Part shown: piece after piece, positions 7,801 through 27,285 of the stretch
Layout of the letters: the number at the start of each line of letters is the position of its first letter
How positions within the stretch are numbered: position 1 is the stretch's first letter
DNA from: Rhytidiadelphus loreus
Taxonomy: Eukaryota; Streptophyta; Bryopsida; Hypnales; Hylocomiaceae
Assembly (NCBI GenBank): GCA_947034895.1
Contig: OX344763.1
Span: 83,161,093-83,225,092 of the forward strand
Direction: 5' to 3'
Length of the DNA stretch: 64,000 nucleotides
The notes under the pieces: model-generated
What the model was told of the DNA's origin: nothing
Databases searched by the model: none
What the model saw: only the letters and a program-made list of their open reading frames with translations
Position numbers and translations under genes: made by a program

Positions 7801-8536
7801 AAAGAGGATCAGAACACGCAGACGAAAGGTAGAGTTTATGTGGGGATGAAGAGGAAAGTTGTGTTGCCAGAGTTCTCAGAAGACGTTGTTACACAAGGTA
7901 TACAAGTGATTGAACTTGGTGACAATGACAATGTGACCTCGGAAGAGTTGGTGCTCAACGTCTCTATTGAAGAGGTTGTCGACAATGAGAAAACGCCCGG
8001 CTCCAATTGCTACACCGAAGTTATGGATTTTTTGAAGAAGGTAATGTACATGTTTTTGTAATTAATAATTTGGTTTTCAAAGTATATAGCTATTCCTTAC
8101 TCGTGACATGGACTTAACACCTGTCAATTTGTGTTTGCAGATGGTGAAAGGGAAGAAGAGGATGTTTGATGGAGTAGTCAATCGATGGCTGGGATTTGAC
8201 CTCATGCTCTTTGATTGCCAGGAGAATTTGCCAGTGCCGAATGTGTCGACTACACCTAATCACGTGCCTTACTGGAACTCGGATCGAGAGTACAACATGA
8301 TTAATGAAGCATTTTTCTTTGCAAAGGCCTTATTCGTTAATTTGAGACAAAATCAAGACTTTGAGAATTTGAAAAAGGAATGTGAATCATTGTTGAAATT
8401 ATAGTTGTTGAGCTCTACGATAAGTACTACCGGAATCAAAGGTTTGATTGAAAGATTATAACATGTCGCCCATAAAGACTTTGAGGAAGCGACTCCAAAT
8501 GCATTCATACATAAGAAGACGTGGAAATGCGAGTGA
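4894..8536 (+). pseudogene. seven-exon ParB-like / amino-methyltransferase-like gene, front half
   Basis: Exons are about 4894-5574, 5713-5903, 6071-6265, 6355-6570, 6702-6937, 7314-8040 and 8141-8536. All boundaries are GT-AG except the first intron, whose edges are ambiguous. Exon 1 has an acidic head and then VCDSNHKLLSWMSYI followed by WHCAVDSIVLD, which resembles the ParB-type 'GxHRxxAw' strand-turn. It continues as the conserved-looking NK-S-T-E-D-S-H-VKTNLVHTL. Exon 6 has a long Lys/Glu helix (about 7640-7770) and QVIELGDND. Exon 7 has FDLMLFDCQENLP, placed like motif IV (DPPY) of an amino-methyltransferase but degenerate. Lesions are TGA 6104, TAG 6245, TAG 8402 and TAA 8459. Past 8404 the frame still reads as protein (GIKGLIERLQ, FEEATPNAF) to a TGA at 8534. 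The back half of such a domain occurs at 26.0-27.3 kb. Function is inferred. Confidence 0.5.
7069..7140. repeat. 72-bp imperfect palindrome, MITE-like (copy 4), in an intron
   Basis: It has GGGGTC at the left, GGACTCC at the right and a central dyad ACTGTCGGATCCGATGGTGG at 7096-7115. It lies inside the intron at 6938-7313 of the ParB-like gene. Confidence 0.55.
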
Positions 8537-8934
8537 ATTTAAGTACATTCACATAGCTTTATTGGCGTAGTCCAAATGCACACGCTGTATGTAAGAGTCG
8601 CTTTCAATGTCCTCTAAACGAAATGAAACAGGAATCCAAAAGATTTCAAAGAACATATGCGAAGGCAGTCTAAAAAGATGTATACAACTAGTGTAACTCT
8701 TGTTCTCTGTAAAAAGCGCTATTAATAGTAAGTCTCAAAGATGAAAGTAAGATGTTCCATCTCTTTCCTAGATGATTTTCGCCACATATGATGCTATTAA
8801 TAGTAAGATAGTCGTAGAAGGTGAGGTGATTAAAAATTCACATCACCTCCGCAGGGCTGGCTATCAACTGTACAATTGCTATTGGCTCCATCCATTGCTT
8901 TGAACTTTGCTAGCCCTCTCATAATATCCTCACG
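8537..8934. other. spacer between convergent genes
   Basis: No gene was seen. The palindromic word CTATTAATAG occurs at 8720-8729 and 8794-8803, and once more at 25698-25707. This is the left zone in which a boundary of the inserted unit should lie. Confidence 0.4.
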
Positions 8935-9753
8935 TCAAGAACGAGAGAATGGCGTGATTGGAACGTCCACTATATCATGTAAGGGGTGCCATTGAATTCC
9001 ATTCACATGGCGCTTTGACTTCTCGATGCTTTGGGGGACCTCGAAAGCCGAAAGAGACCTCGACCCTCGAACAGGCGGCCTTGGTAGCGACGCATTCCCA
9101 TTTTCTACGACGGAATGTCCTATACGAGAACGCCGTTGTTCTCTACAAAGTTGCTGACGGAATACTATGCCACCCGACAAACACCGCCTAGGGCGGATGG
9201 AGTGTGAGGGACGAAGTCGTGTATCCTGAAGTTCAGATACAACAGCAGGAGCATCCGTCTTCAGTAAGTCCCTGTGTAAGTCAATTTCCAGCAGAGACGT
9301 GGACCTCAGCGCCAACAGCGTACTCACATCTGCACTAAGAGGAGAGGATAGAAAGCCATCCTCGCCTCGAGGAGAACCAGGTGCCTCCACAACGGAAAGG
9401 TTTAACTTTCGGCTCGTCGAACCATCCATCCGTTGATCAAGTGGCGAAGAGCATCCTCGACTCGAAGAAGCCCGTTTGAGTGGCGACGGAGAATACACGG
9501 GAGTCCTGCCTAGTCCGCGACTTGGAGGGCTATTCACGACCCTGTCCTCAATGTTTCCTTTGGAGTAGTCAATGGCGGCAGATGCCGCATCTATTGCAGA
9601 GCGCAGCATATACGGCTTGGAAAGCGGAGCGGTCCCGCAGCTTCCACTCACAGAAACGGACCCCCTGGAGATGGACTTTTCGGAGCCTGAAAGCAGACTT
9701 CTCGTCACTCTTTGTCTTTTCGGCAGATTAGAGAAGTCCCCAACCTGCTTCAA
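8935..9753 (-). CDS. Ser/Arg/Pro-rich protein segment, in frame with FCP1-like gene
   Basis: An open frame of 272 codons, ending in TGA at 8935-8937, is rich in Ser, Pro and Arg (SPSPLKRASSSRG and similar). No family is recognised. It is in the same frame as the FCP1-like gene upstream on this strand, with a TAG at 9754-9756 and a TAA at 9985-9987 between. The 9757-9984 stretch is open but hydrophobic and AT-rich and may be an intron or UTR. Two weak copies of the 19-bp dyad lie inside, at 9357-9375 (read as SPRGED) and 9452-9470. It could be a low-complexity tail of the phosphatase or a separate exon. Confidence 0.4.
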   Translation of the reverse strand: MKQVGDFSNLPKRQRVTRSLLSGSEKSISRGSVSVSGSCGTAPLSKPYMLRSAIDAASAAIDYSKGNIEDRVVNSPPSRGLGRTPVYSPSPLKRASSSRGCSSPLDQRMDGSTSRKLNLSVVEAPGSPRGEDGFLSSPLSADVSTLLALRSTSLLEIDLHRDLLKTDAPAVVSELQDTRLRPSHSIRPRRCLSGGIVFRQQLCREQRRSRIGHSVVENGNASLPRPPVRGSRSLSAFEVPQSIEKSKRHVNGIQWHPLHDIVDVPITPFSRS

Positions 9754-9984
9754 CTACAGATTCCACAAGCCTACGTTTAATACCATATCACGAGAAACGA
9801 ACAACTTCAAATCAGTGAAAACAGAGACGAACTGGTAGCCATTGACAGATATTTCCAGATAAGAAGACAGGAGAATCAAGTGTATCAAATAAAAATTCAA
9901 TATATTATTTACAAAAACGTCAAGATACAAAAGAAGGTCAACAAAGAGTATGAATCCTCGGAGACAACAAACCAACAAACAAAT

Positions 9985-10908
9985 TTACACAAGAACATAC
10001 TTCCTACGTCGCCCTTTCTCTACGACCACCCCTATCCCAGGCAGCTCAAATCGAGAACCCATCATCTTCGAGGACTCTCTCATTCCGCCAACGATTTGCT
10101 CTAGGCGATCGTCACCCGTCGACAGAGGGTTCCTTCCAATCCTATTCTCTTCGACGTATCGCTGCAACTGGCCAGGACCGCAATTTGCATCTAGACGACG
10201 GAGCCACGGCAGGAGCTGTCCCAAGAGCACGACGTCCCGTCGTTTCTCATGGCTCCACGTCTCTAAGAAAATGGCATTACCATACTCATTACAGACGCTC
10301 TTATCTGGAGAGTCGTCAATGAGAATGGTGTTGTCCGCCGTAAACAAAGTGGTCCCGCTAGTATTGTTAAACAATGTCTCGGACAGAACTTTCATACACA
10401 GCATTTTGGCCCACTGATGAAAGAACTGTCCGGGTGAGACCTCTATCTTCGTGCACTCTTCCTGTCCTAGGACAACGTAGGGCGGTCTGCACCCATTAAA
10501 TAGGTGTCTGGCGATTGGATCGGCATTACGTTTCAACATCGTGGTCCAAACCACGACGTTGTCCGTGATCGCCGAGACCTGTTAGAGGAATTCACCCAGG
10601 TCTTGCCGAGCGAATACCGCCTTGGGTCCAATCACGGTGGGATTCCGATGACACAGAACTTTCTCTTCAACTCGGTAGGGCCTAAATTTATCAGCATAAG
10701 ACTTCATGGCGGTCTGACACAGGATCCCGTTCAAGTCGAAGACTATGTTCAACCACTTCCTCCACGCTGGAGGCACTAACAAGGGCACATTCCTCGGCAC
10801 AATCTCTCTTCCGCACTCTGTCTCTACCTGATCATAGCACGACAACAAAGAAATGGGGTTACCTGTAACAATGCAGTAGAGGGAGAGCCAAAATTTGGTT
10901 GTTTGCAT
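9985..10908 (-). pseudogene. FCP1/NIF-like HAD phosphatase, one in-frame stop
   Basis: The family hydrolyses phosphoserine on proteins such as the RNA polymerase II tail, using an N-terminal DxDG(T/V) loop. Here WLNIVFDLNGILC supplies the nucleophile Asp with Asn at the second acidic place, as I recall for plant FCP1-like proteins. It is followed by DLGEFL, NVVVWTTMLKRNADPIA (motif II region) and TILIDDSPDKSVCN (motif III, the DD pair). These are in the expected order and spacing. One TAA (10582-10584) cuts the frame between DLGEFL and QVSAITDN, in the same frame on both sides with no frameshift; Gln would fit. The 5' limit is unsure: TTACAG|GTAACC near 10864 may be an intron acceptor. Finding it beside methyltransferase- and DUF7869-like genes suggests capture by a mobile unit. 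Confidence 0.65.
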
Positions 10909-11321
10909 TGAGTTTCGTTTAGCAACTGCGGTCGTTCGTTAGATAAAGCTTTCAATGGCACTGGATGTTGCACGCTATAGATTCTTTCGAGCTGAGAAAC
11001 CAAACATCGAAAGCAAAGTTTCATCAGATTGACGAACACTAGATGATTTGAAATTCGCATATTTTATTTACATACGTTATATAATACAGACGGAAAACGT
11101 TTTCTTTATCGGCCGATAAAACTGTATACTCAAAACTATGCTGCACTATACTACACCACGAGGCACAACAGACGGGGTCTCCGTCCGCGCCTAGAAATCA
11201 CGAAGTGGCCACACCATCCTGTCAGGCAGCATGAGTAGAAATGAGATTCAACACTACTCAGAGAATTGCAGGGAGCACCAACACCAGACAATCGTGACCG
11301 ATACACATTATTATCTTGGAC
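10909..11321. other. intergenic, no gene supported
   Basis: A short open frame exists on the minus strand (10824-11060) but has no recognisable motif. It may hold 5' exon sequence of the phosphatase. Confidence 0.35.
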
Positions 11322-12650
11322 TCAATCAAAATCGTAAGGGTCAGAGGGTTGTACCTGAGCGGATTCAGCCGCCTGAGGCTCAACCCCCTCCACAGCTACC
11401 AAACCAGAGGGCCCTCCCTCTTGTACCGCATTTGTGTCCCGCATGTCATCGTCGCTGGCCTCATAGTCGACCTTCTCCTCATCAACTGACATCGGCGAGG
11501 GATTGTCATGCAGAGAGTCGAAAGATGTTCCACAGGTCGAGACAAGTTCCACTGTGGCAACGACATCGGGTGCTGTTGATGCTCCAATTCTATCATCACC
11601 TCGATGATAAGCCCGCCTATCACTCAAACCAGCTCCGGATGGGCTGACGTCCACACCTATGGAAACAACAGCTTCAAAAGCTTGTCTATCTGGAGACAGA
11701 CGCCTGGGAAGCTGGGATGTTGGAGTGTTGGCTATAACATCTTCCACAGGAGCAGGCACTGCATCAGGCTTATCCTCGATTCGAGGATAAGGCAGCCTCG
11801 AGGATGAGGGAGTCTCATGCGAGACCGGAACCTGAGCTGATGTTGTAGGAGATTCGACAAGCGCTGGTTGGCTTGATTGCGACTTCACTGACTGCAAAAT
11901 TTGCGCCACTTGACTTTGGAGAGCGAAATATTGCACTTGTGATTCCTCCTGCATCTTCTGCATCTGCGCCTTTGACTCCTGCTGGAGCTTCAGCATTTCA
12001 GCTTTCGTCTCCGCAGTGCCGGCAACTGCTTCCTTCAGCTCCTTTTCACGAGCCTCCCTCTCAACTTTCCATGCAATTCTTCGGTCCTGTCTCTCCTTGT
12101 CCTTTTGCCAGTAATCCTTCTCGATTTTTACCACGACGCCGGAAGGCAAGAGAAGAGGTTTTATCTCGCTTACCTGAGGAGGTCTACTGTCGTCCTCCTC
12201 CTCATCGTCTGAGGAGTGAGGACAATCGATATCTTCATCACTACTCAAGTCAATGACGGGAATCGCTGCCGCTTCTACATCGGGAACATCTCCCACAGCC
12301 TCCATTATAGTGTCCTCCTCAACCTGAGGACCTTGTCCACCCGAGGACATTGGCGCATCCCCTAGACGCTGTCTAGCGTAATCAGTGTCCGTCTCGTAAT
12401 CCTCCTCTTCATGTCCCGGTTGATGAGATGAAGACGGGAGAGTCAAGTCCGGAACACTGGGCACGCGAGGGGATGTCCTCCAGGTATGAATTTGGAACGT
12501 GTTAGTTCCGAACTCGTTTATTCCTTCAACACCGAGGGCAGAAGGCACATGTAGACCAGCAGTATCCCTGACCCGGTCCACAGGTAATGGATCCTGTGCT
12601 GGTGAATTCAGCGTCATGGGCGGAGACTGAGGTAAATCCATATCAACCAA
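11322..12650 (-). CDS. acidic, SIM-containing coiled-coil protein region
   Basis: This frame of 442 codons ends in TGA at 11322-11324. In order it has a Pro/Ser-rich head, an acidic stretch, IPVIDLSSDEDID followed by SSDDEEEDD (a textbook SUMO-interacting motif, DNA about 12200-12265), a charged helix, and a Gln-rich coiled coil (EAREKELKEAVAGTAETKA, then repeated MQKMQEES). A Ser/Pro/Asp-rich tail follows. No enzyme motif is seen. It begins just after the methyltransferase-like exon on the same strand and may be its C-terminal extension, reached through a frameshift or a missed intron near 12650. Two 19-bp dyads lie in the coding sequence: 11771-11789 (read as YPRIED) and 11591-11609 (read as YHRGDD). 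Confidence 0.5.
   Translation of the reverse strand: MVDMDLPQSPPMTLNSPAQDPLPVDRVRDTAGLHVPSALGVEGINEFGTNTFQIHTWRTSPRVPSVPDLTLPSSSHQPGHEEEDYETDTDYARQRLGDAPMSSGGQGPQVEEDTIMEAVGDVPDVEAAAIPVIDLSSDEDIDCPHSSDDEEEDDSRPPQVSEIKPLLLPSGVVVKIEKDYWQKDKERQDRRIAWKVEREAREKELKEAVAGTAETKAEMLKLQQESKAQMQKMQEESQVQYFALQSQVAQILQSVKSQSSQPALVESPTTSAQVPVSHETPSSSRLPYPRIEDKPDAVPAPVEDVIANTPTSQLPRRLSPDRQAFEAVVSIGVDVSPSGAGLSDRRAYHRGDDRIGASTAPDVVATVELVSTCGTSFDSLHDNPSPMSVDEEKVDYEASDDDMRDTNAVQEGGPSGLVAVEGVEPQAAESAQVQPSDPYDFD
11591..11609. promoter_or_regulatory. 19-bp dyad copy, inside coding sequence
   Basis: TATCATCACCTCGATGATA. It differs from the TATCNTCGANTCGANGATA consensus in the left TCGA. It is translated on the minus strand as Y-H-R-G-D-D. 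Confidence 0.6.
11771..11789. promoter_or_regulatory. 19-bp perfect dyad, inside coding sequence
   Basis: TATCCTCGATTCGAGGATA, a perfect 9+1+9 palindrome. It is translated on the minus strand as Y-P-R-I-E-D, in the same phase as the copy at 11591. Confidence 0.8.
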
Positions 12651-12883
12651 GACCGGTTCCCGGGGGGCGGTTTCTCATAAGTAAGCGAGTAGGGAGAATT
12701 TGAGAAAAGAAAATCGTTCTTATCCATTTTGTCCGCTACCTTCGCAATCCTCAGATACGATCGGGCCTCTTCTTGATTAATAAATCCATAGAAAAATGCA
12801 CCAAACATTTGCACAGACAGATTCAAACACATGAAACTATTTAGTAAATAAGCAGAATCATTCATCATGGGATCAACTAAGGT

Positions 12884-12902
12884 TATCCTCAACTCGAGGA
12901 TA
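12884..12902. promoter_or_regulatory. 19-bp dyad copy, intronic
   Basis: TATCCTCAACTCGAGGATA, within the intron at 12837-12975. Confidence 0.65.
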
Positions 12903-12944
12903 TCCAGATTACTCCAAGCAATTATTACTCCAAACAATTATCTC

Positions 12945-12963
12945 TATCCTCGACTCGACGATA
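12945..12963. promoter_or_regulatory. 19-bp dyad copy, intronic
   Basis: TATCCTCGACTCGACGATA, in the same intron, 61 bp (start to start) from the previous copy and 12 bp inside the donor site. Confidence 0.7.
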
Positions 12964-14301
12964 GGCAAATCTCACCTTCGACGCAAGCATGAACTTCGGG
13001 CCCGAAAAAATTCCAAGAACATTCTCCTCTGGTTTCGCGAAATCTCGTAGAATGTCTAGGTAGAACTCCATTCGGAGTTCGCTTGCCTCAATTCTCCATT
13101 TGGCTTCCGTATTTTTGGAGGCCTCCAAATAATATACGCAATTAGGTGGCGTAACATACTTGGGCTTCATCAACGCCCGCGAGGATTTGGCAAAGTCACT
13201 ACTTTTCTTAAATATGAAAAGTAAAGGCACCTCCGGAGCAGTACCACAATTCGTTACGTTATTTATCATCTCTGCCCGGCTCGGAACATAAGTGGTCAAC
13301 ACTTTCTCGTATTGCTCCATGTGCGAAGATGCAAAAACAGTTGCATCTTTAAGATCCTCCTTGTCTTGCAAAATAAAGAGCCAAATATTTGGCTCTGACA
13401 ATTTGGGGTTGAGCTTTTTCAGGAGGAACGTCATGAAGGGATCGATGGAGCTCACATTCTTCGATGACTTTGCTCTTGGAATTTCTCTAACATCAAGAAC
13501 TGCAAGGTTCACTTCACGGCGTTCATACTGGTACGCCGTACTCGGTACCATTGACTTTGCTTGAATGTCAATACCCTGAATTTGAATTCCTCCAATTGGT
13601 TTTGGAAGTTGATATTTCAACTTCATGAACCGGGTGAACATGTGCAATACTTCAGGAAACTGCTACTCAAGGTCCTTTGCTCGCCTTGTCTAAGCGTCAT
13701 TCCGAAGGCGCTTCTTGAAGTACTCGGCTTTAGGGTGAGAAATGAGAAAATCCCATGATGCCGAGGTAAACCGATGCCGCAACTTCCACGACATCCATGT
13801 TTCGTCAATAACGTCACCACCAGCATCAATAAAGTGTAGAGACTTCTTGACATCCATTAAGTCTTGAAGCACAACTTTCTTGCGCTTTCTTCTTTCGACC
13901 CAATCTGCATGTGAGAGATTGTCCGAAATCAGAATTTTCGTCCTCGAAACAAAGACTTTTGGATATGTAGCCTTCCGATTGGGAGTAGTGCCGAGAAGGT
14001 GTTGTGCAAATATTCCGAAATCGATGTCCGTGAAGTGGCCGCAGTGTTTGAAGAATTCCCTCCTCAGGGCCATATTCTTCATCTTGAACCCCTTGCTGGC
14101 GTTGAACGGTTCCATAGTGACCGGGTCGATCAACTCTCCATTCGTGTGCTTCGTAAGGAAGGATTCCCAATGAGCAAACAACTCGTCCGGCAAGGTTATA
14201 ATCTGAATTTCATTCTTCAGATCTGCTGTTCCACTAATTGAAGCTCCGTCTTTTTCCGGATTTATGCTTTGAAAACGCTCGATGACCGCGTCAATGAATT
14301 T

Positions 14302-14486
14302 CTGCACAGCAAATAAAACATAGAATAGTCAGAGAAAACTGCTATCAGTATCATCGGCTCGATGATACCGTCGAGAAGGTGGTTAACTGTTCCGGCATGC
14401 CATGACAAATGAATAATGTGTTCCAAATGAAGAGGAAATCCAATGTATCATCGACTCGACGATACATGAAATGAACTGATTCTTAC
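14302..14486 (-). other. 185-bp intron carrying two 19-bp dyads
   Basis: The donor is TATAAG|GTAAGA at 14486 and the acceptor is GCTGTGCAG at 14302 (minus strand). The dyads are TATCATCGGCTCGATGATA at 14349-14367 and TATCATCGACTCGACGATA at 14446-14464. The intron joins the N-terminal gene region to the methyltransferase-like exon. Confidence 0.7.
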
Positions 14487-15920
14487 CTTATAATTCTGGA
14501 CATTGAATAATGCATTATTCTTCCTGTGGATGGCCTCATCCTTTTCGTCCGTGGGTCGCTTGTACGTCTTCCAGATATTGCGACAGGAAATTATTTGGTT
14601 CCCCCAAGTCGGTTGAGCGTGATCCAAATGGTTTGTACAGTTATAATGTTTCGAGATGTTTCTGAGTTTGTTGTGATCCAGAGACCACATAATCAGAGCT
14701 TCCCACGTTTGCAGCTGTACTCTTCGCTCTTCACCGCAGCCTTCAATTTGAAGTTCTTTAGAAGCTGTTACACTGTGCTAGCCATTGATAATCATGAATT
14801 GGCCATTTTTAATGTCATCCCAGTTCTTGGGCTTGACTTTCAACAACTGCTTCTTAGAATCGACAGGTGTAAGACAAAGAGTTTGTCTTTGCTTCATATC
14901 AATGAATTGAATGAGCTCCTTCTTTACTGTGTCCATGATGTCTCTCTGCAGTGTCCTGATCACATATTGATCGCAAGCAATTATGCATTGCTTTATGTAA
15001 ACGGTGACGGACTGCATCCCCTGCAGAAAACAGTCCTTATGGTCGGACCAGAAGTTGCGCTGAATAGATGCGAACTTCACGTGATCTGGTAGACGCTCTT
15101 TTGTTCCAGCTGAGTTGGTTGTCAAAGCAGATCCGGAGCTTCCAGCCCCAACAATATCACCCGGGAGACTCTTCTTCCTCTTGCGACTCGATTCACCTCC
15201 ATCTGAATTAGTTGCGTCCCTCTTCTTGGGCTCGGATCGCGCCTGACCTAGACAATTAGTTCTTGATGCAGAGCCGCCGGCAGTTGTTGGCGCAGTCGAT
15301 CGTCTGATCTCTGTTGACGGACGTCCCAGTAATGGTGCTTGTTCCACGTTTGCCAACGCATACCGATCTAGCATCTGAAAAATCAGACAAAGCCTTGAAG
15401 CGTTTGACTTTGCAGTGCTGTTTTTCCAAGGCACGTACCCATATTTCTCGAAATCTTCATTCAAGGACTCCATTTGAGACCCCTCTAGGAAAGTCATCAA
15501 GTTATCGAGGTCAAACTTGCCTTTTTGTGAGTTTACATCAATTACAATGGAGTGACAGTGGTCCAGATGTTTGCCACTTTCATCAACTTCTCGGAGGACG
15601 ATCACCACGTAGTTCTTTCGGTGCTCCTCAATGAGTGTAACTTTCTCCTTGATGTTGAGGGGTGTGTAGTTCGTCTTCCCTTGTATGCGGAAGCGTATGT
15701 ACACATAATTCTTCCACCGATTGACTCCGAATGTCCAATTTGGAACGTGGTCCTTGAATTCCCATAATGTCCCAAATGTATCTTCCATCTCAGTTATGAA
15801 CGGCTCGTCGGGAATGGGGTTCACAAATGGTTGGAGATGGTGGCTTGTTGTGGAGTAGTCATAGTTGTCTAGCTGTTCCATCTTGGATGTCCTGGAAACA
15901 ACAATTAAATCAATTAACAT
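14487..15920 (-). pseudogene. N-terminal part of the minus-strand methyltransferase-like gene
   Basis: A continuous frame runs from about 15880 to 14487 with one TAG (14778-14780) after FMIING. Coding resumes in the same frame with HSVTASKELQIEGCGEE and runs to a canonical donor at 14486. The first 150 codons include TFGVNRWKNYVYIRFRI and VIVLREVDESGKHLDH; no known domain is certain. The middle is a Ser/Gly/Lys-rich linker with a nuclear-localisation-like SSRKRKKSLPG. The rest is helical, Lys- and Gln-rich. The likely start is MEQLDNYDYST (about 15882); an earlier Met lies at 15920. I infer one gene spanning about 15.9 to 12.6 or 11.3 kb. Five 19-bp dyads lie immediately upstream. Confidence 0.45.
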
Positions 15921-15935
15921 GTTCTACAGCAATTG

Positions 15936-16471
15936 TATCGTCGCCTCGATGATAATCACTTGAGTTACGCCATTGGGAGATCACTTCTGAGATGAGTTAT
16001 GTGTTTCTCTTCTCGACAATTAGTTTAAACATTAATTTTAGATTTTTCCAGGATGTTTCTTCGCCATGATATTCATTTTTTAGGATCGATTATATTGAAG
16101 TATTCTCTATCGTCGATTCGATGATCCCTTTCTATTTTTCGACAATATTATGTTTCTGATAATGCCTTCTCACAGCATTTTTGATGTTGACAATTTTTCC
16201 TCTGTCATTCTGGATTACCTCTCTCATTTCTGTTTCCAGATATTTTAGGAGGATTTTGTATACTCGACTCGACGATACAAATTTCATTTTGAGGGTCAGC
16301 CTATCAAATATCATGTGGTTAATATACTCGTATAATAGTTTCGATGTTGATGTATCTCTTTGTTCTTCTCGATATTGAGGTATCCTCGAGTCGACGATAG
16401 ATTGGAGGCTGTTTTTTCTGGCTGGGTTCAAATGGTTGAATTCATGGATGCTTATCGTCGACTCGAGGATA
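15936..16471. promoter_or_regulatory. cluster of five 19-bp dyads upstream of the minus-strand gene
   Basis: The copies are at 15936-15954 (TATCGTCGCCTCGATGATA), 16108-16126 (last base changed), 16259-16277 (TATACTCGACTCGACGATA), 16381-16399 (TATCCTCGAGTCGACGATA) and 16453-16471 (TATCGTCGACTCGAGGATA). They lie in the 550 bp 5' of the gene starting at about 15.9 kb. This fits promoter- or transposase-type binding sites; function is inferred. Confidence 0.7.
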
Positions 16472-16550
16472 TAGTTTCATTATTCAAGATTTTCTATTTA
16501 TGAAAATTGGGAGTCTTGATCTTCAAGTCTGCATCCTTGAATTCTACTCC

Positions 16551-16604
16551 AAAACCCTAATCGTTTGCCATAAACCCTAATTAACATAAACCCTAAATCC
16601 CAAA
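16551..16604. repeat. interstitial CCCTAAA-like telomeric words
   Basis: AAACCCTAA occurs three times, interrupted. Further single words occur near 16760. Confidence 0.75.
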
Positions 16605-17204
16605 AGTATTTTTCTACCTTACAACTTCCAATCGCAGAAAATAACAAGAAATACTGTCACTGAATTTATAATAGTATTTGAACACCTGCAATCACAATAC
16701 ATGTCTGTGAAAATTACGTTTAGCAAAAGTTGATTGCCACATTCCTGAAAATACAGAACCCTAAACCCTGAAGGAAATCAACATAGACATTCCAAAACAA
16801 ATGAAGATGAAACCGTGCCAACTGAAGTCAAGCAACTAAGTAGCACCACAACCTACAATGCTTCACAGACAACAAAATGAAACCCAAACCACAAAATCAC
16901 ACCCGAGAATGCAAATAGGAAATCCAGCTGCAACGTGTTTCTCCATAGCAACGTACATTTCAAGGAAGTGAAGGAATTCAATCAGAAACAAACTTCAAAT
17001 ACGAGGACAACAACAAACCCGAGGAGTTCAATATAGCAAACAAGGAATGAAAACCAAAAAGGTGCAAGCTTCAAAGAAGACATGGAATTCAAGTGCGAAT
17101 TCATCTACTGAAATTACAAATCGAGAAAGAAAGAACTCATGGCGTTCAACTCCTACCGCGGCTTGCAACTTCTTGAACTCCAACCACGGACCACCGTTGA
17201 GCAC

Positions 17205-17525
17205 CACCGAACACGCGCGCCACCGAACACGCACACCGCGCCTCAACCAGTGCGCCACCGAACACACACACCGCGCCTCACCCTAGCGTGCCTCCACCGA
17301 ACACACACACACACAAATGCAAACGGACGTGCCTCACACACACAGCACACGAAGATCGAAGCGCGGCAAAAAATGAAAACATACGGAGACAGTCGAAGAA
17401 GCGCGCGCGTCGATGGAGGAGGAGGCTTCCGCGACTGGAGGAGGAAGACGAAGCCCCGACCCCAGCCCCGATCCCAGCCCCGACCCCGAACCCGAACCCG
17501 AACCCAAACCCAAACCGAACCTTCA
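17205..17525. repeat. GC-rich low-complexity: CA-rich and GAACCC-type runs
   Basis: There are CACACA runs near 17235-17330 and a hexamer-like series of CCGAACCC/CCCAAA at about 17455-17520. Several overlapping open frames on both strands arise from these repeats; none has a recognisable domain. It lies between the two divergent arms. Confidence 0.7.
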
Positions 17526-17625
17526 AAATGGAAGTGCCGAACCAAGACCAAGCTGGCAATTCAGGTTCATCTATATCAAATTGTTGTTGGCTTGGAAACC
17601 TTAGGAGTTCAAATTTCCTTATGAA

Positions 17626-20600
17626 ATTTCTGAATAAGAAGACTTTTGTATTGTTTTTAGAAGGTTTCTCAAAACCTCATAAGTTCAAATTTCCTTCTAA
17701 AAATTCCCATTAAGAAGACTTTGGTATTGTTTAACCCGAAACTTATTTGAAGGTTTCCCTAATATAATGGTTCCTTTTTGTATTTCTTATTTTTATGGTA
17801 GTTCTTCTTGGCTACAACCTTACTTTTAATAAACTGGTATTAGGATAATACGACGCCGTTCTAGCAAAAGGAGGAAGTTTCTTCATCACGTATCAGCATA
17901 TTAAAATATCAAATAGGATTGCAGTTTCTTGACTTCGAAAGAGGAAGTTTTACACTAGTAACATATAAGTAGGATTGCAACTACTTATTAGAACGAAAGA
18001 GATTATATGTTTTTGAAGTCCTTCTTAATACTCAATTTTCAATGTTTTTAGAAGATCATGGGATTAAATTTTATATATTACACCCTAAACCCAACTAGGA
18101 TTGTAATATTTCAATTACTAAAGTTTTGCCTTAACAATTTAGTATTTTAAATCATTGTGAAGTATAATGTTTTTACTATTTTCTTACTACATGTTGTATA
18201 ATACCAAATAATTTGAAATTTAGAAAGCATGTAGCCAAGTAGTCTACGAAGATGAATCTAAAGAAGCACTACCATTTTGGACCTTTTTTTATAGAATAAT
18301 TAGCTTGTACAATGGAACTGCCAATATTTATACAAGGTCAAAAAAATAAAAATAATGTAAGTGAATTTGAATGCTTATATTTTGCAATCAAAGTTGCATA
18401 TTTCCATTAACTACAAATGGTGACTTTAGAGATTCAATCAATCGAGGAAGATTGTCTAAAATTAATAAAAAAAAATTGTAGTATTATAAATGTGACACAC
18501 ATATGAAGTGAAAGGATAAATTTGATTTCTTAGATGAATTACACTTAAAGGTCTTCGTTGTCACTAGTACGGGTCTACAAAAAAACTAATCATTCAATTG
18601 AATATTTTTCAAAGTAACTTTCCCTTATTTTTGTTCCTTGCTAGTGAATTTGTAATAAATTGAACAGGTTTAGCTAATTTTAGTCATGTATGTTCAATGT
18701 AGGAAATACAAATGAGAACAATAAGAATATTTGTTAAAACAAACTACAAATTTGCAAATTGAAAAAGAATGTGGAGTTGTGGGTAAAAATAATTAATTAG
18801 GCTACTCATTATTATCTTTTTCATAGAAGTTGCTTATAGACAACACTAAAGTATGTTAAGCAATAGTATTGATAAGTGCAATTAGTTCTACAAATAAGAA
18901 AATTGTCATGAATTTATAGGGTTTCAGTGTGGCAAGTAGGTCAATCAAATGGGTCTTATATACCACCAACTAGTGTCATCTCAATTTTTAGAGAAAATTC
19001 GTACCTTCAATTTCATTGAAATCCTTTAACTTCCTATTTTGCATAAATATATGTAGTAATGTAGTATTCTGAAAGTAGAATAGTGGTAGTTAAAATCTTA
19101 ACAAGTATTTGCAAAGGTGTGGCTTACAAAAACTTTAATACTTTTAGTACTACATAGTATATACAAGAAAATCGAAATTACCAGAGTATTCTCACATTGT
19201 CATTGTGATTTGTTTTAAACTCTTTTATTTTAATCTACCTTGCGATTAATGAGAGCCACGATCATTGTAAACATTGAAGCTCATTTTATGTTCATTTTTT
19301 TAATTGTAAATATATTTTTAGCTATCTAGACATATTTCAGCACTTTAGGAAGATGAGCAATACAAATTTGTTTTCGAATTAAGGGTCTTCCAAAAATTTA
19401 AAAGAACATCGACTAACATTTTATTCTTTAAATCTCATTTCAAACTGTCACTAAGATCGATCCATATGAACTACAAAAGGATGTCTTTCAAATTATAAGA
19501 ATAAATCTTTCAGTTGTTGTATGCCATTGAACATAGACATGCAAGAATGAGTCAGGGCACATTTGTAGGGTAGAATTTACCTTTGACCATTCGTAACTTC
19601 TGTTTAGGGTATCTTAGATATCGTTCTTGAATATATCCAAGGACATTTCAATTTTATATTAAATAGAATACGATACAATTTTTTTAAATAGTATCAGAAC
19701 AATTTTGTTGGTTTCAATGTTATTTATATGAAACAGGTTAAGGTCTCCTTCAAATTTTGTTCATGAAGAATGAAATTGATTATGGTACACAATCTAAACA
19801 AAACACTTGGCAGATTTTGAGGAAGTGTACATTTAATCAATATGTACATATAAATCAGATTCCAAATGTTTTAGATCAAAGGCAAAGATTAGCAGTTCTG
19901 CATGTATATGAAGAAGCTTATTATATTTGGTGAAGTTCACTAGATACTCCCTCCACTTCAATAGGTTTGTCACCTTTGTGCATAATCTTTAGTACCCCCT
20001 TTTTTTTGGTGGAATTCTAATTGCCCATTAGACTCTAGAATTATATATATTTATTTATATTGTTTGAAAATCATACTTTTATTTCATTTTGCTTTGTAAA
20101 ATGGAAGAGCTACTAATGTAGTTTAATAATTTCATGTTATCACGATAATAATATAATTGTGTTCAAAGTTCTTAGAAAGAATATTTGCATAAAAATCATA
20201 GAATTTATAGTTTAATAGAATTATAATGACTCTTCAAACATGAAGCGGAATCACCTTTTACGTTCCAACCATAAAATCCTAATAAAACAATAACATAATA
20301 TCATAAAAAATGCAAAATTCACAATCATTATGATCGGTTTTAGGGTAATCACCCTTTGAACCATAAACTTTAAACTCTTAGGAAGAAGAGGAATTAAGAT
20401 TCTTGTTACTTTGATCAATAACACACTAAAATAAATAGAAATTTATGGAGAAAATGAATGAAGAACTTTATATTCTTAGTTATAGTGATTTGTAATTTTA
20501 TAAAAATAATGCAGTCATTACTTCAACACTTTTAAAGAAATTTCATGTGATATTTGGCATGATGTAGACAGTCGATATTTTGGTTACTAAGGCCTTATTA

Positions 20601-21010
20601 TTAATACTATAGGATTTAGAGTGTTTCAAACATTTTAATCTAGAAGTTCCATGCATCACATGAATAAAGCACTTCGTATGTACATCAAGTTGAGAAATGT
20701 CATTCTTCCTAATTAAACGTTCTTAAATTTCTGTATGCATGTTATAACTTTTATATATCATTCTTGATTGAATTTGAGATTTCTAGTAAATTTGTAGGAC
20801 TTACTTGGTGTTGCATTTCTTATTTGCATATATTTAGGGTTTACGCATATATTGTCGATTCAAAGCATTATATTTCTTCGGTCAAATGTTTAAATTCATT
20901 AATAATGAGCTTCGAATGAAACCCTTAACCGGCCAAAATAATATTCTGTAACGTAAAATGTTCCATTCCGCTCCAGAACACATTGACATTTTGTATTTCT
21001 TGTCATAGCC
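17626..21010. other. AT-rich spacer without genes
   Basis: Over 3 kb of strongly AT-rich sequence has no open frame of note, no 19-bp dyad and no recognisable element. It separates the two dyad clusters and is bordered on both sides by CCCTAAA-like repeats. Confidence 0.6.
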
Positions 21011-21012
21011 GT

Positions 21013-21117
21013 GAACCCAAACCCTAAACCCTAAAGGCAGACCCTAAACCCTAGAAAACTTGAACCCAAACCCTAAACCCTAAGGCAGACCCTAATCCCA
21101 AAAATCCTAAACCCTAC
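21013..21117. repeat. interstitial telomeric-like array with a 49-bp duplication
   Basis: Two copies of TGAACCCAAACCCTAAACCC followed by GGCAGACCCTAA start at 21012 and 21061, plus single CCCTAAACCC words. Confidence 0.85.
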
Positions 21118-21942
21118 ATATTTCACTTTTGAATGCCTATACAGAGAAATTTTGAGAATTCCTTGAACTGATATACCACGCTAAATCGTTAGAAATGAAA
21201 AAGTAGCCGGCACATTGAAGAGGACCAAACTTATTTTGGTGCAATACTATAATGCCGCCCACTTTTTGACGCAAAGCTGACAGAAAGCGCTAATTGTAGC
21301 TGGCCCAAACTTTTACAGGAATAAGGGCCCAAGAATCATGCCCACTTATCCCACATTTTTTGGGAATTCAAATATTGTCAACTCCGCGCTCATTTTAGGC
21401 GCCCTTTTTCGTCGGAAAGCTTCCTTCTCTGTGTACCACCATGCCATGGGTACTGAACGCCTCCTTCGCAACGGTTCATTCTTTTAGGTTTTGCTGTATC
21501 CATCTTCATTCGCAAAGAGTGCTCCGACGTTCTCTTTTCTCAAGTTATTGATTTTGTTCATGAGCTCCTGTTTGGAGTGGACACTTTTATACGGTCATTT
21601 GGCTCCGACCGTTTATTTCGTTACATTGTCGTTGTTTTGTTTTCTGAGGTCTTGTTTCAAGCGGTTAGTTCTACAGAAACGAACGTGCATGCAGGCCTCA
21701 GTTGCGTGGAAAGATATCGTCCTTCAGGTGGTTAACGAGCGCGATTGTCATCGTTGTTCTTGCAATTTCTTATCTGTTTCAGAAGAAGAGGTTTGTGATT
21801 TGTTTGTTGTGCTCAGTGCAGTACGCGCATAGTTTGTTGATTCGTATTCCTCTCGCAATTGTCGAGTATGAAATTTACAGTCTCCTACATTTACGCCGAT
21901 TATTCCAGAAGCGTTTCTTTCAATCTACTGAATTCAGTGGTC

Positions 21943-22659
21943 TATCGTCGACTCGATGATAACTTAGTTAGATATCAATGATCTCGGAATTGCTTACTAT
22001 TCATTCTATCCTCGAGTCGATGATATCTTTATAGTTTTCAGGAATATTTGGATATTATTTATTATTATTCACAATTAAAACCGATCAGTGTTGTTAATGT
22101 TTGATCAGGAAATATTATTAATATCCTCGAGTCGATGATAAACATTTCTCTGGGAATCTGAAGATGATTCGCATTATTATAATTTGGTTTTTGAGGGACT
22201 TTATCAACAATATGATGAATCATTTTCTCTTAAAGTACTTATTGTGAGTGACTCTATAAGTTCATCGCCTAGACCTATTCTCAAATAAAATAAACAAGTA
22301 AGGATTCTATATCATCGATTCGACAATATATATGTATGGTATCTGTATGTGGTTATCATGTTAGTGACACCGAACTGAATATTTCAGTGAGATAGTGAGG
22401 ATAAAATTCTTTTGTCCTCTACATTGAGAGGCGCATTGTTTTAAATAATATCGCCAATGTCGTATCCTGGAATTATCCTTGACTTGAGGATACAGGTATG
22501 TCGTAATTGAAAAAGAACAATCTTAGAGATCAACTTTGATGGAATTGAATATTTATTCTTTAACCTTCCTCCACATATATTTATGTGAGTTGAGAGTGAT
22601 TTGTGTTTTTGGAGGAATTCAGAGTATGACAGTCTTAGAGTATCGTCGAGTCGAGGACA
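21943..22659. promoter_or_regulatory. cluster of six 19-bp dyads upstream of the DUF7869-like gene
   Basis: The copies are at 21943-21961 (TATCGTCGACTCGATGATA), 22007-22025 and 22122-22140 (both TATCCTCGAGTCGATGATA), 22310-22328 (TATCATCGATTCGACAATA), 22474-22492 (TATCCTTGACTTGAGGATA) and 22641-22659 (TATCGTCGAGTCGAGGACA). All lie in the 830 bp before the gene start and mirror the cluster before the divergent gene at 15.9 kb. Confidence 0.75.
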
Positions 22660-22774
22660 ATTGGATTGTATGGAGAATTTATGCGTGGAATCGCTTTCAT
22701 TTACTTTCGAAATAAGAAATTGCATTTGGGACTGAATGATTTTATTTCTAAAAGTTCTTGTCTTTGTTTCCAGC

Positions 22775-25615
22775 ATGGATATTCATGGACCACATGATTT
22801 TGCGAACCTAGTGCCTGCAATGCCTCTTGGTATTGCATACTGTGAAGGAATTCCTCGCGCGAAGTGGAACACTCGTTGCGTCACTTTGCAAAATGAAGCT
22901 GGAATTGATGTCGCACACGGAGTTTGTCAAAACGTTGATCCAACACTTGTCATCGACATGGACAGAAAGCCTCTTGGTGACGATTGTGTTGCGGTGCAAA
23001 TTGCAGAGTCTTTGTGCGAGGAGGAAGTACTAAGCGCGTGGATGTGGTCGATGCACTCCTAGCACATTACACGAGTGTTTCTTGACGGTGTCAGTTTGTA
23101 TGATCATGACCAAACAGATATTTACAATGTGGCCATGAAAGCACTTAATCAAAAAGCTTGTAAAGGGGTTCAATTCTATGAAACCTCTCGGGAAAGGGTT
23201 GAGCCTGATGTCCCTCCAAAAAAAGAGTCTCTTCTCACCGTTCAAGCAATCACTAAAGTCTCCACCAAAACTTGTTGCAGCAGTAATTGCTTGCAACCTT
23301 TTCCACGTGGGCAAATTCAAACCCTTCGAACTCAACTTCATGTACATGACGGAGTGTATGCTCGGAAAAAATGTCTTCTTGACGTGCATGGTCAAGTCTA
23401 TAAAGATAATTCTGGAAAGGAGTGGATCACTTTGAAGGGAAGAAATGTTTGCCCCACTGCATGGTGGACAATTCATGGTATTTCTAAAGCCACTTTCTAC
23501 AGGTACAAAGATATGGCAAAAACTGGCAAGAAAGTAGAGGAGCATGGGAATTTTGGATTCAAAAAACCTCGGATGCATACATTACAAGCCACTGCCACGC
23601 TAAGAACAATCCTTGTGTCCGATGCTGATAGAATGCCACACAAAACGAGGACACTAGAGTCAGGGGAGAAAGTTCCTGCTATGGTTTTGCCATCAGCGTT
23701 TCAATGGAGTGCACAACTACCAAAACTCAATGAAGCCAATGCTACATTGAATTTGCCGCCCATTTCTTCTAGTGGCTTGAGCAACATTCGACGGGCTTCT
23801 TTCCCAGAATTTGCCCCCAAAGCTCGTGGAGACACTTTTGCTCGATGTGGTTTGTGTGATCAATATAAGCAATTGAGGTGTGCATGTACTCCGCTTTCAT
23901 ATGCACAAGAGAAGTGGTCGAGAATGCTAGATATCCACCTTGTTGGACAAAGGGCCCATAGAGATTTGTATTATGGAAACCGATACATTTCCGAAGCATT
24001 TCCTGAGAAGATGCTAACTATCATCCATGATAAAATGGATCACTCGAAGACTGCTTCACCTCACTACTCGCACAAGACTAAAGCCTCCGATTCCTTTATG
24101 AAAATGCCGGTTGTTGTTACGGGTATGATAGCCCATGGTCATGGGGACGTTCGGTATGCACACTACGGGCTTGACATTTTTCCAACGGACTCTAATCATA
24201 CCATCGGCTCTATTGCAAAGTTGTTGCGAGATCTTGAAGAAGAGTCTAAGAATTCATCGCGCAAGTTATTTTCTGAAGAAGGGACCCAATCCGCATTAAC
24301 CAAGGCTCTTCTGGACAGCTCAGACATTTGCTTGGACTCCCTCCTTCCACCTCCAGAAGGAGTAATCCCAGTTCATTCTTTGCCACCAATATTGACTTTA
24401 CAACTTGATAATGCATCTGGACACAATAAAAACAGATGGGTTTTTGCATTTTGTTCATTTCTAGTATACAAAGGCATTTTCAAGGAAGTGTACATCAACT
24501 TCCTCATTGTTGGCCATACTCATGAAGACATCGATGCTCTTTTTGGTCGTTGGAGTAGTTTGTTGAAGACAAACAACTACCCCACACTTCCAAGACTAAT
24601 GAAATCCTTCATGGATTGTGAAAAGCACCCTGTCATTCCTTATTTGATTGAGGAAGTTCCTGATTTCAAAAAATTTGTGCAAGGCTACTTGGGCACAGGT
24701 GGAGATTTTTTAGAAGGGCATTCGAGATCCCAACAATTCAAATTTCACATGCATTCTAGTGGATGGCCTTTGATGGAGTACAAGAATTTGTGTACAGATA
24801 GGGATTGGTTACCAGATCACGGCAACGGGATTCGCTTGTGGTCGGAGACTGAGGACGGGCTTCCCAAGGTGCCTAGGGGTGATCCGGCACCTCTAATTCC
24901 CCAAGACATGAAATCTTTGAATGAGATCAAGCGAGGTTTAAACGGATTCATTGCACAATGGAGCGGAATGGCTGATGATGAGCAATTTGGAGAGTTTAGG
25001 AGGAAGAATGGTCCTATAAGAGAGTACTGGAAAGGTGTGCGCACTGCTCTCGATGCACCCCTTGAACCACGTGCTAGATTGTTGCAAGGGTTTTGGCCGA
25101 CTTCGAGGATCAATGAGGAAAATGAAGCAGATCTTAGACAAATGGATGGTACATTGCCTGAAGAAGATGCAGAGGATGCACCCTTTGTTGGACGTAGGCG
25201 TGATCGTCCACGTCCTTCATTCCGTGTTAATCGTGATACATTTGTTGACTATTTTGTTGTGGTGCGCCCAGCTAATGATGATCCAAAGCCATTTTGGCTT
25301 GCTAGAGCCATTACTAATCCAAATCCGAATCCAGGTCATATGCATATGATTGAGATTCAGTATTGGACTCCAGCTACAGAACGATCCATTAATATGGAGA
25401 CATGTGATGGATGGGACACAAAGAAAGGGAACGTGTAGCGCGAAGATCGAGTGATATCTCCAACGTGGTCAAATACTGATTGTATCATGACAGCTTGGAA
25501 GCCTCGTGTTCGAGAAGGAACTTCAGGCCCAAGGATAGCAATTCTAAAGCAACAAATCGACATCATCAAAGCAACAATAACAGCTTTTGGTAATGGCCAG
25601 AACAATGATGAATAG
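22775..25615 (+). CDS. DUF7869-like protein, nearly intact, two in-frame TAG
   Basis: This is the best-preserved gene in the window, with 946 codon positions and no frameshift. The start at 22775 follows a good acceptor (TTTGTTTCCAG), so an upstream exon is possible. TAG codons at 23060 and 25436 interrupt the frame. Both sides read as protein, and the 3' part (REDRVISPTW, ILKQQIDIIKA) ends at TAG 25613. Motifs: CCSSNCL near residue 165, VCPTAWWTIHGISKATFYRY, a Cys cluster CGLCDQYKQLRCAC, IIHDKMDHSK, LTLQLDNASGHNKNRW, and VGHTHEDIDALFGRWS. I know this set as the DUF7869 family. The Asp in DKMD, LDN and EDID are spaced like an RNase H-fold catalytic triad, so a transposase role is possible but inferred. 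Six 19-bp dyads precede it. Confidence 0.65.
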
Positions 25616-26029
25616 ATGGTGCGAAGATGAATAGTTTACTAGTTTTATAAATAGACTTCTATTATACGGTAGTGTGCAATTGTCTCTAATGTTTTTTCTA
25701 TTAATAGTTTTTCTTCATATTATTACTTTACTATATTCTTAATCCAATGCATTCATTTTGATTTTATTTTTATCTACCTATTTTTTTCATGTGAAAGATT
25801 GTGTACCAACAGTGTAAAGGCTATTTGTCACTTAAGACATGCAAGTTTCAATCTAAAGATATGTTTCATTTCTTGTTGTTTCTTGAATGAAAATAAATGA
25901 CATTGTTTATATTGCATTCTCTCTTTTTTCCAAACCAAAGCAAGTCAAGCGAACTTGCATTTTGACATTGGAAATTCTCAATTTATTGAATAGTCTCAAT
26001 TTAATGAAAGCTTTTTAATTTTGAATACA
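25616..26029. other. intergenic, AT-rich
   Basis: No gene was seen. It is the right-hand zone in which a boundary of the inserted unit should lie. It contains one CTATTAATAG (25698-25707), also present twice at 8.7-8.8 kb. Confidence 0.4.
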
Positions 26030-27285
26030 GGAGGGTATTAAAATGAGACCACCATTTGTCTCAATTTAACGAATAAGGCCTTTGCTGAAAAACATTTGCA
26101 AGACCATGGCTGCATTGTGGTGTTCCATTCGTGGAGCGTGGATGCCAAAAGCACCATTGCTGGACTCTGTGAAGGGTACCCCACAATGGTAAAGGAGAAA
26201 GAATGGATGGGCATGAATCAAGTGCATTTGACTTCGGCCATAGACCAAAAGAGCACGGTATGATGTTGTTTTTCACAAAACCAATGTAGTGTGTACTTTT
26301 CATTTTATATTTTCTCTCAATTTTTTAATGTGTTTGTTTTAATGCTTACAGACTTTGAAGTTCGGCATTACACTTTTGATCAAAGGACCTCGATGACAGA
26401 GGAAAATCAAAATTCTTTTTTAAGCGCTCACCAACAATGTTGAAGGCCAAAGTCGACCTCAGGCTTGATGACTTGCTCATGAACTACACCACCGAGGATT
26501 CCATATTAATGAACGACATGGATCGAATGCCATGGCGAGGGGCTCGAGAAAAGGACGCCCGCTTATTGCGGCACATCATTGAAGGAACCACCGACGAAGG
26601 AGATGTTGTTCTTGACTGCACAGCATCCACGGGTGAGTTTTGAGTGAACATGTGTATATTCCATGTGTATGCTGTACTCAAAATGATATTTGGTAGTCAC
26701 ATCCTTTTTTTTTTTTTTCAGGTGCCTCTATTAGAGCCTGTCGTGCGACAGGGCGCCACATTCTGGCATTGGAGGCAGATAAGATGATTTTTGCAGGCAT
26801 CCTTGAGCCTATGAAGAAGACCATCCCTCCTGTTGCGACAACTGTAGTTTCCGAAGCGCCACCAGTTGTGGTTTCGCAGGATCCAGACGCTATGACTATA
26901 AAAGTGCGGAAGTTTGTTCGGCGAGATAGACCTAGTAAGTAAGTTTCTTTGTTTTCAAATGATTGATTTGCATGATACTTGTAAGCTTTCAAGAATCTAA
27001 CACTCAGTCATTTGTGTTTGCAGCAACGAAGGATTGATGGCACCGGGGGTCGTGAAGAAGATACGAAGACTTATCTTGAGTCCGGAAAATTCATTTGATC
27101 TTCCCGTCTATGCAGAGCAGCTGGCATCGGCGTTTGCTGAGTTTGGTACTTTAAAGTCCAAACGCCGTACTCCTTCCTACGCTCTAAATGTCTTGCAATT
27201 CATAGACGGATCAGCTTCCGAGGGTAGAGAGACTTCTGATTCTTCTAGTGACAAGGATTCTGTGACCGAATCTACGGCAACTTAG
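26030..27285 (+). pseudogene. amino-methyltransferase-like domain, back half
   Basis: The first exon reads NKAFAEKHLQDHGCIVVFHSW, a beta-strand 5-type segment. An intron runs from 26259 to about 26351. The next exon has one TGA after LLIKGPR and then MLKAKVDLRL and REKDARLLRHIIEGTTDEGD. It continues as VVLDCTASTG|ASIRACRATGR and HILALEADK, matching motif X plus motif I and the acidic end of strand 2 in permuted (beta-class) amino-methyltransferases. The intron at 26633-26721 splits the motif I Gly and restores frame exactly. A last intron (donor GTAAGT at 26939) leads to a basic, Ser/Glu-rich tail ending in TAG 27283. No DPPY-like motif is present in this part; the matching front half is at 4.9-8.5 kb. 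Conventional DNA-methylating activity is doubtful. Confidence 0.5.

What the first reader, a model, noticed from the sequence alone, without database searches (positions are those of the whole stretch)
9357..22659. Seventeen copies of a 19-bp dyad TATCNTCGANTCGANGATA confined to one unit
Seen: copies at 11591, 11771, 12884, 12945, 14349, 14446, 15936, 16108, 16259, 16381, 16453, 21943, 22007, 22122, 22310, 22474 and 22641, all exactly 19 bp. Two weaker ones lie at 9357 and 9452. I found none in the other 50 kb. The arms TATC and TCGA are kept, while positions 5, 10 and 15 vary. The changes at 5 and 15 are not compensatory (for example C/C, G/G, C/T), which argues for a dimer-bound DNA site rather than an RNA hairpin. 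Copies cluster 5' of the two divergent genes, in two introns and in coding sequence. CpG-rich TCGA is preserved although the surroundings show C-to-T decay. This looks like a transposase- or regulator-binding site family of an undescribed element.
Basis: seen in the sequence. Interest (0 to 1): 0.88.

Follow-up and report, generated by a model that had tools for sequence, protein, structure and literature searches.

The report
Jumping gene tagged by palindromic sites
A large jumping gene of what is probably a moss carries many copies of one 19-letter palindrome in the control regions and introns of its own genes, which look like landing sites for a protein that the element makes to recognise its own kind.

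Summary
The dyads are real: 17 copies (at most 2 mismatches) in the window, all in 11.6-22.7 kb; chance predicts 0.2 even at 3 mismatches. They lie in a 17.76-kb DNA transposon (8324-26082; TIRs AAGGCCTTATTCGTTAA.., 4-bp TSD) with a DUF7869 gene (probable DDE transposase), a divergent gene whose product has a ParB/sulfiredoxin-fold domain, and an FCP1/NIF-like gene. Genome-wide there are 1414 exact sites against 1 for the reversed control. All 20 upstream regions that I picked by DUF7869 homology carry dyads (135 sites, 0.1 expected). The first 67 exact sites listed on contig C1 all lie in or near this family or its miniatures. Dyads are more conserved than the DNA around them. They persist where the proteins are about 45% identical, in 'dialects' that follow protein subfamilies. 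Seven gene-less 255-bp relatives with separate TSDs each keep two dyads. Best reading: family-specific recognition sites of an element-encoded dimeric protein, most likely the ParB-like one, controlling expression and mobility, analogous to VANC of Arabidopsis VANDALs. Binding and effect are inferred. ParB-like accessory genes are known in algal transposons; my searches found no report of paired palindromic sites with dialects.

The parts
8324..26082 (.). DNA transposon, 17.76 kb, holding all dyads
   Evidence: Homology to other copies stops at 8324 (L024) and at 26082-26091 (L028, L021, L011, L020, L010); TIR pair; uninterrupted relative of the flanking gene
8320..8323 (.). left target-site duplication, TGCA (imperfect against TGCT)
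   Evidence: sequence; perfect 4-bp TSDs at other insertions
8324..8348 (+). left terminal inverted repeat AAGGCCTTATTCGTTAATTTGAGAC
26058..26082 (-). right terminal inverted repeat
26083..26086 (.). right target-site duplication, TGCT
25970..26057 (-). subterminal repeats of ATTAAATTGAGAC, possibly transposase sites (inference), distinct from the dyads
22775..25438 (+). DUF7869 gene, probable DDE transposase; one in-frame TAG at 23060-23062
   Evidence: PF25273 E 3.4e-44; AF2 fold of a relative
14487..15881 (-). gene A exon 1, ParB/Srx-fold domain in its last third; premature stop at 14778-14780
12976..14301 (-). gene A exon 2 (holds stops in this copy)
   Evidence: splice sites; tblastn
11322..12837 (-). 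gene A exon 3, acceptor uncertain, frame broken in this copy
9985..10581 (-). gene B exon, FCP1/NIF-like phosphatase domain
   Evidence: PF03031 E 1.8e-6
8935..9753 (-). further ORF, 87% identical in L024
11591..11609 (.). dyad in gene A exon 3 (counterpart at L009:8772)
11771..11789 (.). dyad in gene A exon 3 (counterpart at L009:8592)
12884..12902 (.). dyad in gene A intron 2
12945..12963 (.). dyad in gene A intron 2
14349..14367 (.). dyad in gene A intron 1
14446..14464 (.). dyad in gene A intron 1
15936..15954 (.). dyad 5' of gene A
16108..16126 (.). dyad 5' of gene A
16259..16277 (.). dyad 5' of gene A
16381..16399 (.). dyad 5' of gene A
16453..16471 (.). dyad 5' of gene A
21943..21961 (.). 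dyad 5' of DUF7869 gene
22007..22025 (.). dyad 5' of DUF7869 gene
22122..22140 (.). dyad 5' of DUF7869 gene
22310..22328 (.). dyad 5' of DUF7869 gene
22474..22492 (.). dyad 5' of DUF7869 gene, degraded here, better kept in the ten aligned relatives
22641..22659 (.). dyad 5' of DUF7869 gene

Best explanation
The dyads are recognition sites (operators) of a DNA transposon family. A dimeric protein encoded by the element, most likely gene A's product with its ParB/sulfiredoxin-fold domain, binds the palindrome. Arrays of sites 5' of the transposase gene, 5' of gene A and in gene A's introns let it find its own family and, most likely, keep those regions active against host silencing and competent for transposition. 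Gene-less miniature copies keep two or more dyads between their TIRs, which suggests that the sites also help an element in cis. Shown: element, sites, conservation, family association, dialects, mobile dyad-bearing miniatures, a predicted ParB-like fold, low Ka/Ks of the genes. Inferred: that gene A's product is the binder, that it binds as a dimer, and that the outcome is activation or anti-silencing.
Against: No binding, expression or methylation data. Foldseek gave no ParB match at E of 0.001 or less (best 1.3e-3); no Pfam ParB match in 26 members and no PDB sequence match to ParB. The Arg of the ParB/Srx GxxR-type motif is Ser in 32 of 32 relatives. The Mantel test does not control for shared phylogeny, and DUF7869 distances were not tested against it. 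No helix-turn-helix was identified. The feature list behind 67 of 67 was partly compiled from stretches fetched because they hold dyads. CpGs in dyads still decay by C-to-T (23 of 176). Two dyads lie in coding sequence. 22 of 57 DUF7869 hits had no listed gene A hit within 30 kb, though only 150 of 913 gene A candidates were scored. L017 has a dyad array with no family gene in its own 10 kb; the nearest gene A is in neighbouring L018.
Confidence: 0.5

Rival explanations
1. The DUF7869 transposase itself binds the dyads as internal or subterminal sites, needed for synapsis; gene A has another job.
For: The miniatures fetched keep TIRs plus dyads and no genes. In the miniature of L019 the dyads sit next to GTCTCAATTT-like repeats. 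All 20 DUF7869 upstream regions examined carry dyads.
Against: In the window element the dyads are about 3.3-3.4 kb from both ends. The right end carries a different repeat, ATTAAATTGAGAC. The dyads concentrate at gene starts and introns.
Confidence: 0.17
2. The dyads are sites of a host transcription factor recruited by the element to drive its genes (each arm contains GATA).
For: Position 5' of genes and in introns; GATA at both ends (sequence).
Against: 16 of 19 positions agree in at least 14 of 17 copies, far beyond a GATA core. Site dialects differ between element subfamilies, which one host factor would not need. The 67 exact sites listed on C1 go with the family.
Confidence: 0.12
3. ParB-like gene A represses the element through the dyads (KorB/ParB-like autorepression and copy control) instead of activating it.
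For: The fold hits include KorB, titled a transcriptional repressor in the PDB. Sites lie at the starts of both genes.
Against: Gene-less miniatures have no gene to repress, yet keep dyads, and one insertion has 3-8 of them. No functional data either way.
Confidence: 0.15
4. RNA hairpin or processing signal.
For: The 19-mer is a palindrome; complementary pairs at 5/15 are in excess in two dialects.
Against: No covariation in the window dialect, 30 vs 35.3 expected. Dyads sit in gene-less miniatures.
Confidence: 0.03
5. Neutral tandem repeats inherited and spread by copying, without function.
For: Some arrays are tandem, with spacings of about 40, 44, 73 and 122 bp.
Against: Dyads are more conserved than neighbours (0 of 5000) and are kept between elements whose gene A exon 2 shares about 45% identity.
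Confidence: 0.03

Closest known systems
VANDAL transposons and their VANC anti-silencing proteins (Arabidopsis; PMC5735166 passages, PMC10398659 abstract)
   Same: Short motif at high density upstream of one element gene and in introns of others; often tandem; motif variants by subfamily; high density peculiar to the family; gene-bearing DNA transposon.
   Different: VANC21 motif is a 9-bp same-orientation YAGTATTAY; here a 19-bp palindrome. VANDALs are Mutator-like with (recalled) longer TSDs; here 4 bp. Gene A has a ParB/Srx-like fold; a relation to VANC was not tested. Anti-silencing is shown for VANC, only inferred here.
Sola1-1_Ec32 of Ectocarpus and algal transposons with ParB-like plus DNA methyltransferase accessory genes (PMC12477816: passages, outline, part 1 of section 5, part 2 of the references)
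   Same: Giant DNA transposon; accessory gene with ParB-like domain on the strand opposite to the transposase; that paper suggests such proteins may bind and modify their own transposon.
   Different: No binding site is reported in what I read there. Here no methyltransferase domain is found by Pfam in 3 exon-2 proteins, and multi-copy palindromes are present.
Sola1 transposons of Physcomitrella (listed in the table of PMC9033089, passages; original paper not held)
   Same: Moss; 4-bp TSD is the Sola2 feature given in PMC3627910 (passages) and, recalled, of the Sola groups.
   Different: No Sola1 sequence was available for comparison, so homology is untested.
Bacterial ParB-parS, Noc, KorB
   Different: Invariant Ser where the GxxR-type Arg is expected; HTH not identified; CTP use unknown; sites in a plant transposon.
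Plant En/Spm TNPA and its subterminal repeats (recalled)
   Same: Element-encoded binder with multi-copy sites that can both regulate and help transposition.
   Different: Sites there are subterminal; here at gene starts and introns in the full element.

Membership tests
DNA transposon with TIRs | Terminal inverted repeats and constant-length TSD | tested here: met
   TIR AAGGCCTT..; perfect 4-bp TSD in 20 of 21 miniature loci, which represent 8 different insertion places since 14 share one flank; TTTT and ACAA in two large copies (read by eye); window TSD has one mismatch
DDE transposase (RNase H-like) | RNase H fold with conserved acidic residues | tested here: inconclusive
   [not shown]
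Sola1 superfamily | 4-bp TSD | tested here: met
   that this defines Sola rests on PMC3627910 (Sola2) and recall; other superfamilies also have 4-bp TSDs (recalled)
Sola1 superfamily | Homology of transposase to Sola1 | not testable with these tools
   No Repbase or Sola1 sequence held
VANDAL (Mutator-like) | MULE-type TSD of about 9 bp (recalled) | tested here: not met
   4-bp TSD
VANDAL (Mutator-like) | Subfamily-specific motifs 5' of genes and in introns (works-like test) | tested here: met
VANC | Homology of gene A to VANC proteins | not tested
   No VANC sequence fetched
ParB/Srx superfamily | ParB/Srx fold | tested here: met
   [not shown]
ParB CTPase | GxxR-type nucleotide motif (recalled) | tested here: not met
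   NGQHS in the family; Ser at P0121 position 389 in 32 of 32
ParB CTPase | HTH domain binding a palindromic parS | tested here: inconclusive
   Palindromes present; HTH not identified, exon 2 not folded; Pfam and PDB profile searches of exon 2 gave none
ParB-methyltransferase TE accessory proteins | DNA methyltransferase domain | tested here: inconclusive
   No Pfam match in 3 exon-2 proteins; only degenerate motif-like strings by eye

The most novel reading that the evidence does not exclude
A ParB-parS-like self-recognition system in a land-plant transposon: a ParB-fold protein loads at 19-bp palindromes in its own family's gene starts, introns and miniature copies, possibly spreading from them as bacterial ParB does, to exclude silencing and license transposition. 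Each subfamily has evolved its own site dialect, so that elements tell self from non-self.
Probability: 0.3. Interest if true: 0.9.

Novelty: new variant of a known kind. Interest (0 to 1): 0.76.

Why it matters
Plant transposons that outwit silencing with their own sequence-specific protein are known in detail from VANDALs. This would be a separate case on a ParB-type scaffold, with over a thousand exact sites, several natural dialects and gene-less reporters (the miniatures) in one genome. It gives candidate binding sites for the ParB-like proteins of transposons, and makes their role testable.

Tried and rejected
The TIR-like pair first looked like coding sequence shared by two flanking genes; comparison of many ends showed that AAGGCC onward is the element. 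An 8-bp palindromic TSD AAGGCCTT was considered and dropped, since AAGGCC is constant and the 4 bp outside it vary. The weak sites 9357/9452 were rejected. A degenerate methyltransferase in gene A exon 2 was suspected by eye; Pfam and PDB profile searches gave nothing, so it is left as a lead. A third homologue search with a spliced gene A found no full-length annotated protein, only P0130 and P0137. PDB sequence searches with A1 and A2 gave nothing useful; the one row for A1 was a chloroplast ATP synthase subunit, E 0.026. The count of 8192 at up to 2 mismatches (control 74) equals 2^13 and may be a cap; the exact count 1414 is used instead. The first flank comparison used the wrong reading frame for the left flank; it was redone in the coding frame. 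Paper searches that found no description of this element or its dyads: (DUF7869: 0 papers); these looked only at listings, the library holds open papers only, and the original Sola paper was not held. Of the papers, PMC5735166, PMC9033089, PMC3627910 and PMC4455052 were seen as passages, PMC10398659 as abstract and outline, PMC12477816 as passages, outline, part 1 of section 5 and part 2 of its reference list; the rest as search listings only. A further scrambled-palindrome control search did not complete.
Full report
OBSERVATION. Of the 19 positions 8 are the same in all 17 copies and 6 more differ in one copy; position 5 is C, G or A but never T, position 15 is T, G or C but never A. By position, 5 dyads lie 5' of gene A, 2 in its intron 1, 2 in intron 2, 2 in exon 3 and 6 are 5' of the DUF7869 gene. 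Both genes start shortly after a TTTCCAG acceptor-like string, so the upstream arrays may lie in 5'-UTR introns (inference).

THE ELEMENT. Blastn against other copies stops at 8324 and at 26082-26091, where inverted ends AAGGCCTTATTCGTTAA(A/T)TTGAGAC lie. TSDs are 4 bp: ACAA and TTTT for two large copies (read). The TTTT copy is split by what looks like a 151-kb inversion on C1: the gene A half in L025/L009/L024, the DUF7869 half in L010. The window's TSD is TGCA/TGCT, one mismatch. The flanks of the window element read as one gene: in L025 a relative of it runs through in one frame, the left-flank part matching 7527-7700 (52% identity, E 1.8e-19) and the right-flank part 7698-7832 (59%, E 8.9e-16), with nothing between. 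This window copy is broken: TAG in the DUF7869 frame at 23060 and stops in gene A.

SITES BELONG TO THE FAMILY. Starting from dyads: of the 20 stretches first fetched on C1, 15 (L009-L023) hold dyad clusters; 13 of these 15 hold gene A and/or DUF7869 relatives, L019 holds a miniature, and L017 has neither, its array lying about 7 kb from the gene A of neighbouring L018. Starting from genes: 20 upstream stretches, chosen from the 57 DUF7869 hits without looking at dyads, all carry dyads, 135 sites, 0.1 expected; one of the 20 was a 431-bp piece with a single 3-mismatch site. Starting from unexplained dyads: 9 stretches fetched, 8 held DUF7869 or gene A relatives (in L052, L054 and L056 partial) and 1 a miniature relative. 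Of the 67 different exact places listed (first 28 Mb of C1; later ones were not listed), 67 lie within 16 kb of such a feature, 53 within 3 kb; the feature list was partly compiled from stretches fetched for their dyads, so the 20 gene-chosen regions are the cleaner test. Genome-wide exact count 1414, reversed control 1.

CONSTRAINT AND DIALECTS. In 11 close copies, the six upstream dyads are 93.9% identical and the rest 81.9%; no random set of blocks in 5000 reached this. Between elements with gene A exon 2 at about 45% identity, dyads persist but change flavour: position 5 A/C/G in window-type, C/T in another, and TAYC arms in a third. Dialect distance follows gene A distance (r 0.78, p 0.0002, 8 elements); shared descent alone could give part or all of this.

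MINIATURES. L019 holds a 377-bp gene-less element with the same end motif, TSD AATA and 3 dyads in 122-bp units. A genome search gave 53 matches from 116 candidates, 40 scored. I fetched 20 further places: with L019, 21 of 21 have both TIRs and 2-8 dyads, 20 of 21 a perfect 4-bp TSD. Fourteen share one flank, so they look like one insertion carried by a larger repeat, with 3-8 dyads; the other seven (of 26 such matches) are 255-bp copies at different places (TSDs ACTT, TTTC, TAAG, CAAG, TTAA twice, ATTC), each with two dyads. In the window element the dyads are about 3.3 kb from the ends, so their presence in 255-bp copies is not explained by being terminal there.

MECHANISM. Shown: a mobile family, its sites, their constraint, dialects, mobile miniatures. 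Inferred: a dimer binds; the binder is gene A's protein (DUF7869 protein is the main rival); the effect is activation or anti-silencing plus help in transposition. The closest functional parallel is VANC21, whose motifs lie upstream of VANA21 and in introns of VANB21 and VANC21, often tandem, and diverge by subfamily (PMC5735166, passages). The closest structural parallel is the opposite-strand ParB-like/methyltransferase gene of Sola1-1_Ec32 (PMC12477816, passages).

ORGANISM. Unnamed; the named DUF7869 relatives among the 120 listed are Physcomitrium patens and Ceratodon purpureus (44-53% identity), so a moss or other bryophyte is likely but not shown. G000 has 407 Mb; the five contigs from which I took stretches are 50.7-94.4 Mb.

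Noticed in passing
35400-38938: Large perfect inverted repeat: arms of 1039 nt, 100% complementary, 1461 nt apart, inside AT-rich and repeat-rich DNA.
   Followed up: no
4855-8323 and 26083-26221: Gene interrupted by the element; relatives of its exons at L025, L019 and L050, so perhaps a repeated gene family in or near which elements and miniatures land.
   Followed up: partly
46087-48184: hAT transposase remnants; Dimer_Tnp_hAT domain in the ORF 46087-46929, E 1.4e-8.
   Followed up: no
L025/L009/L024 and L010 (C1:11119512-11277734): A copy of this element is split by an apparent 151-kb inversion with a breakpoint inside it near window 20410.
   Followed up: partly
L058-L070, L019: One miniature insertion inside what looks like a larger repeat has 3 to 8 dyads, changing by about 122-bp units: expansion of dyad arrays.
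   Followed up: partly
[not shown]
   Followed up: no
[not shown]
   Followed up: no
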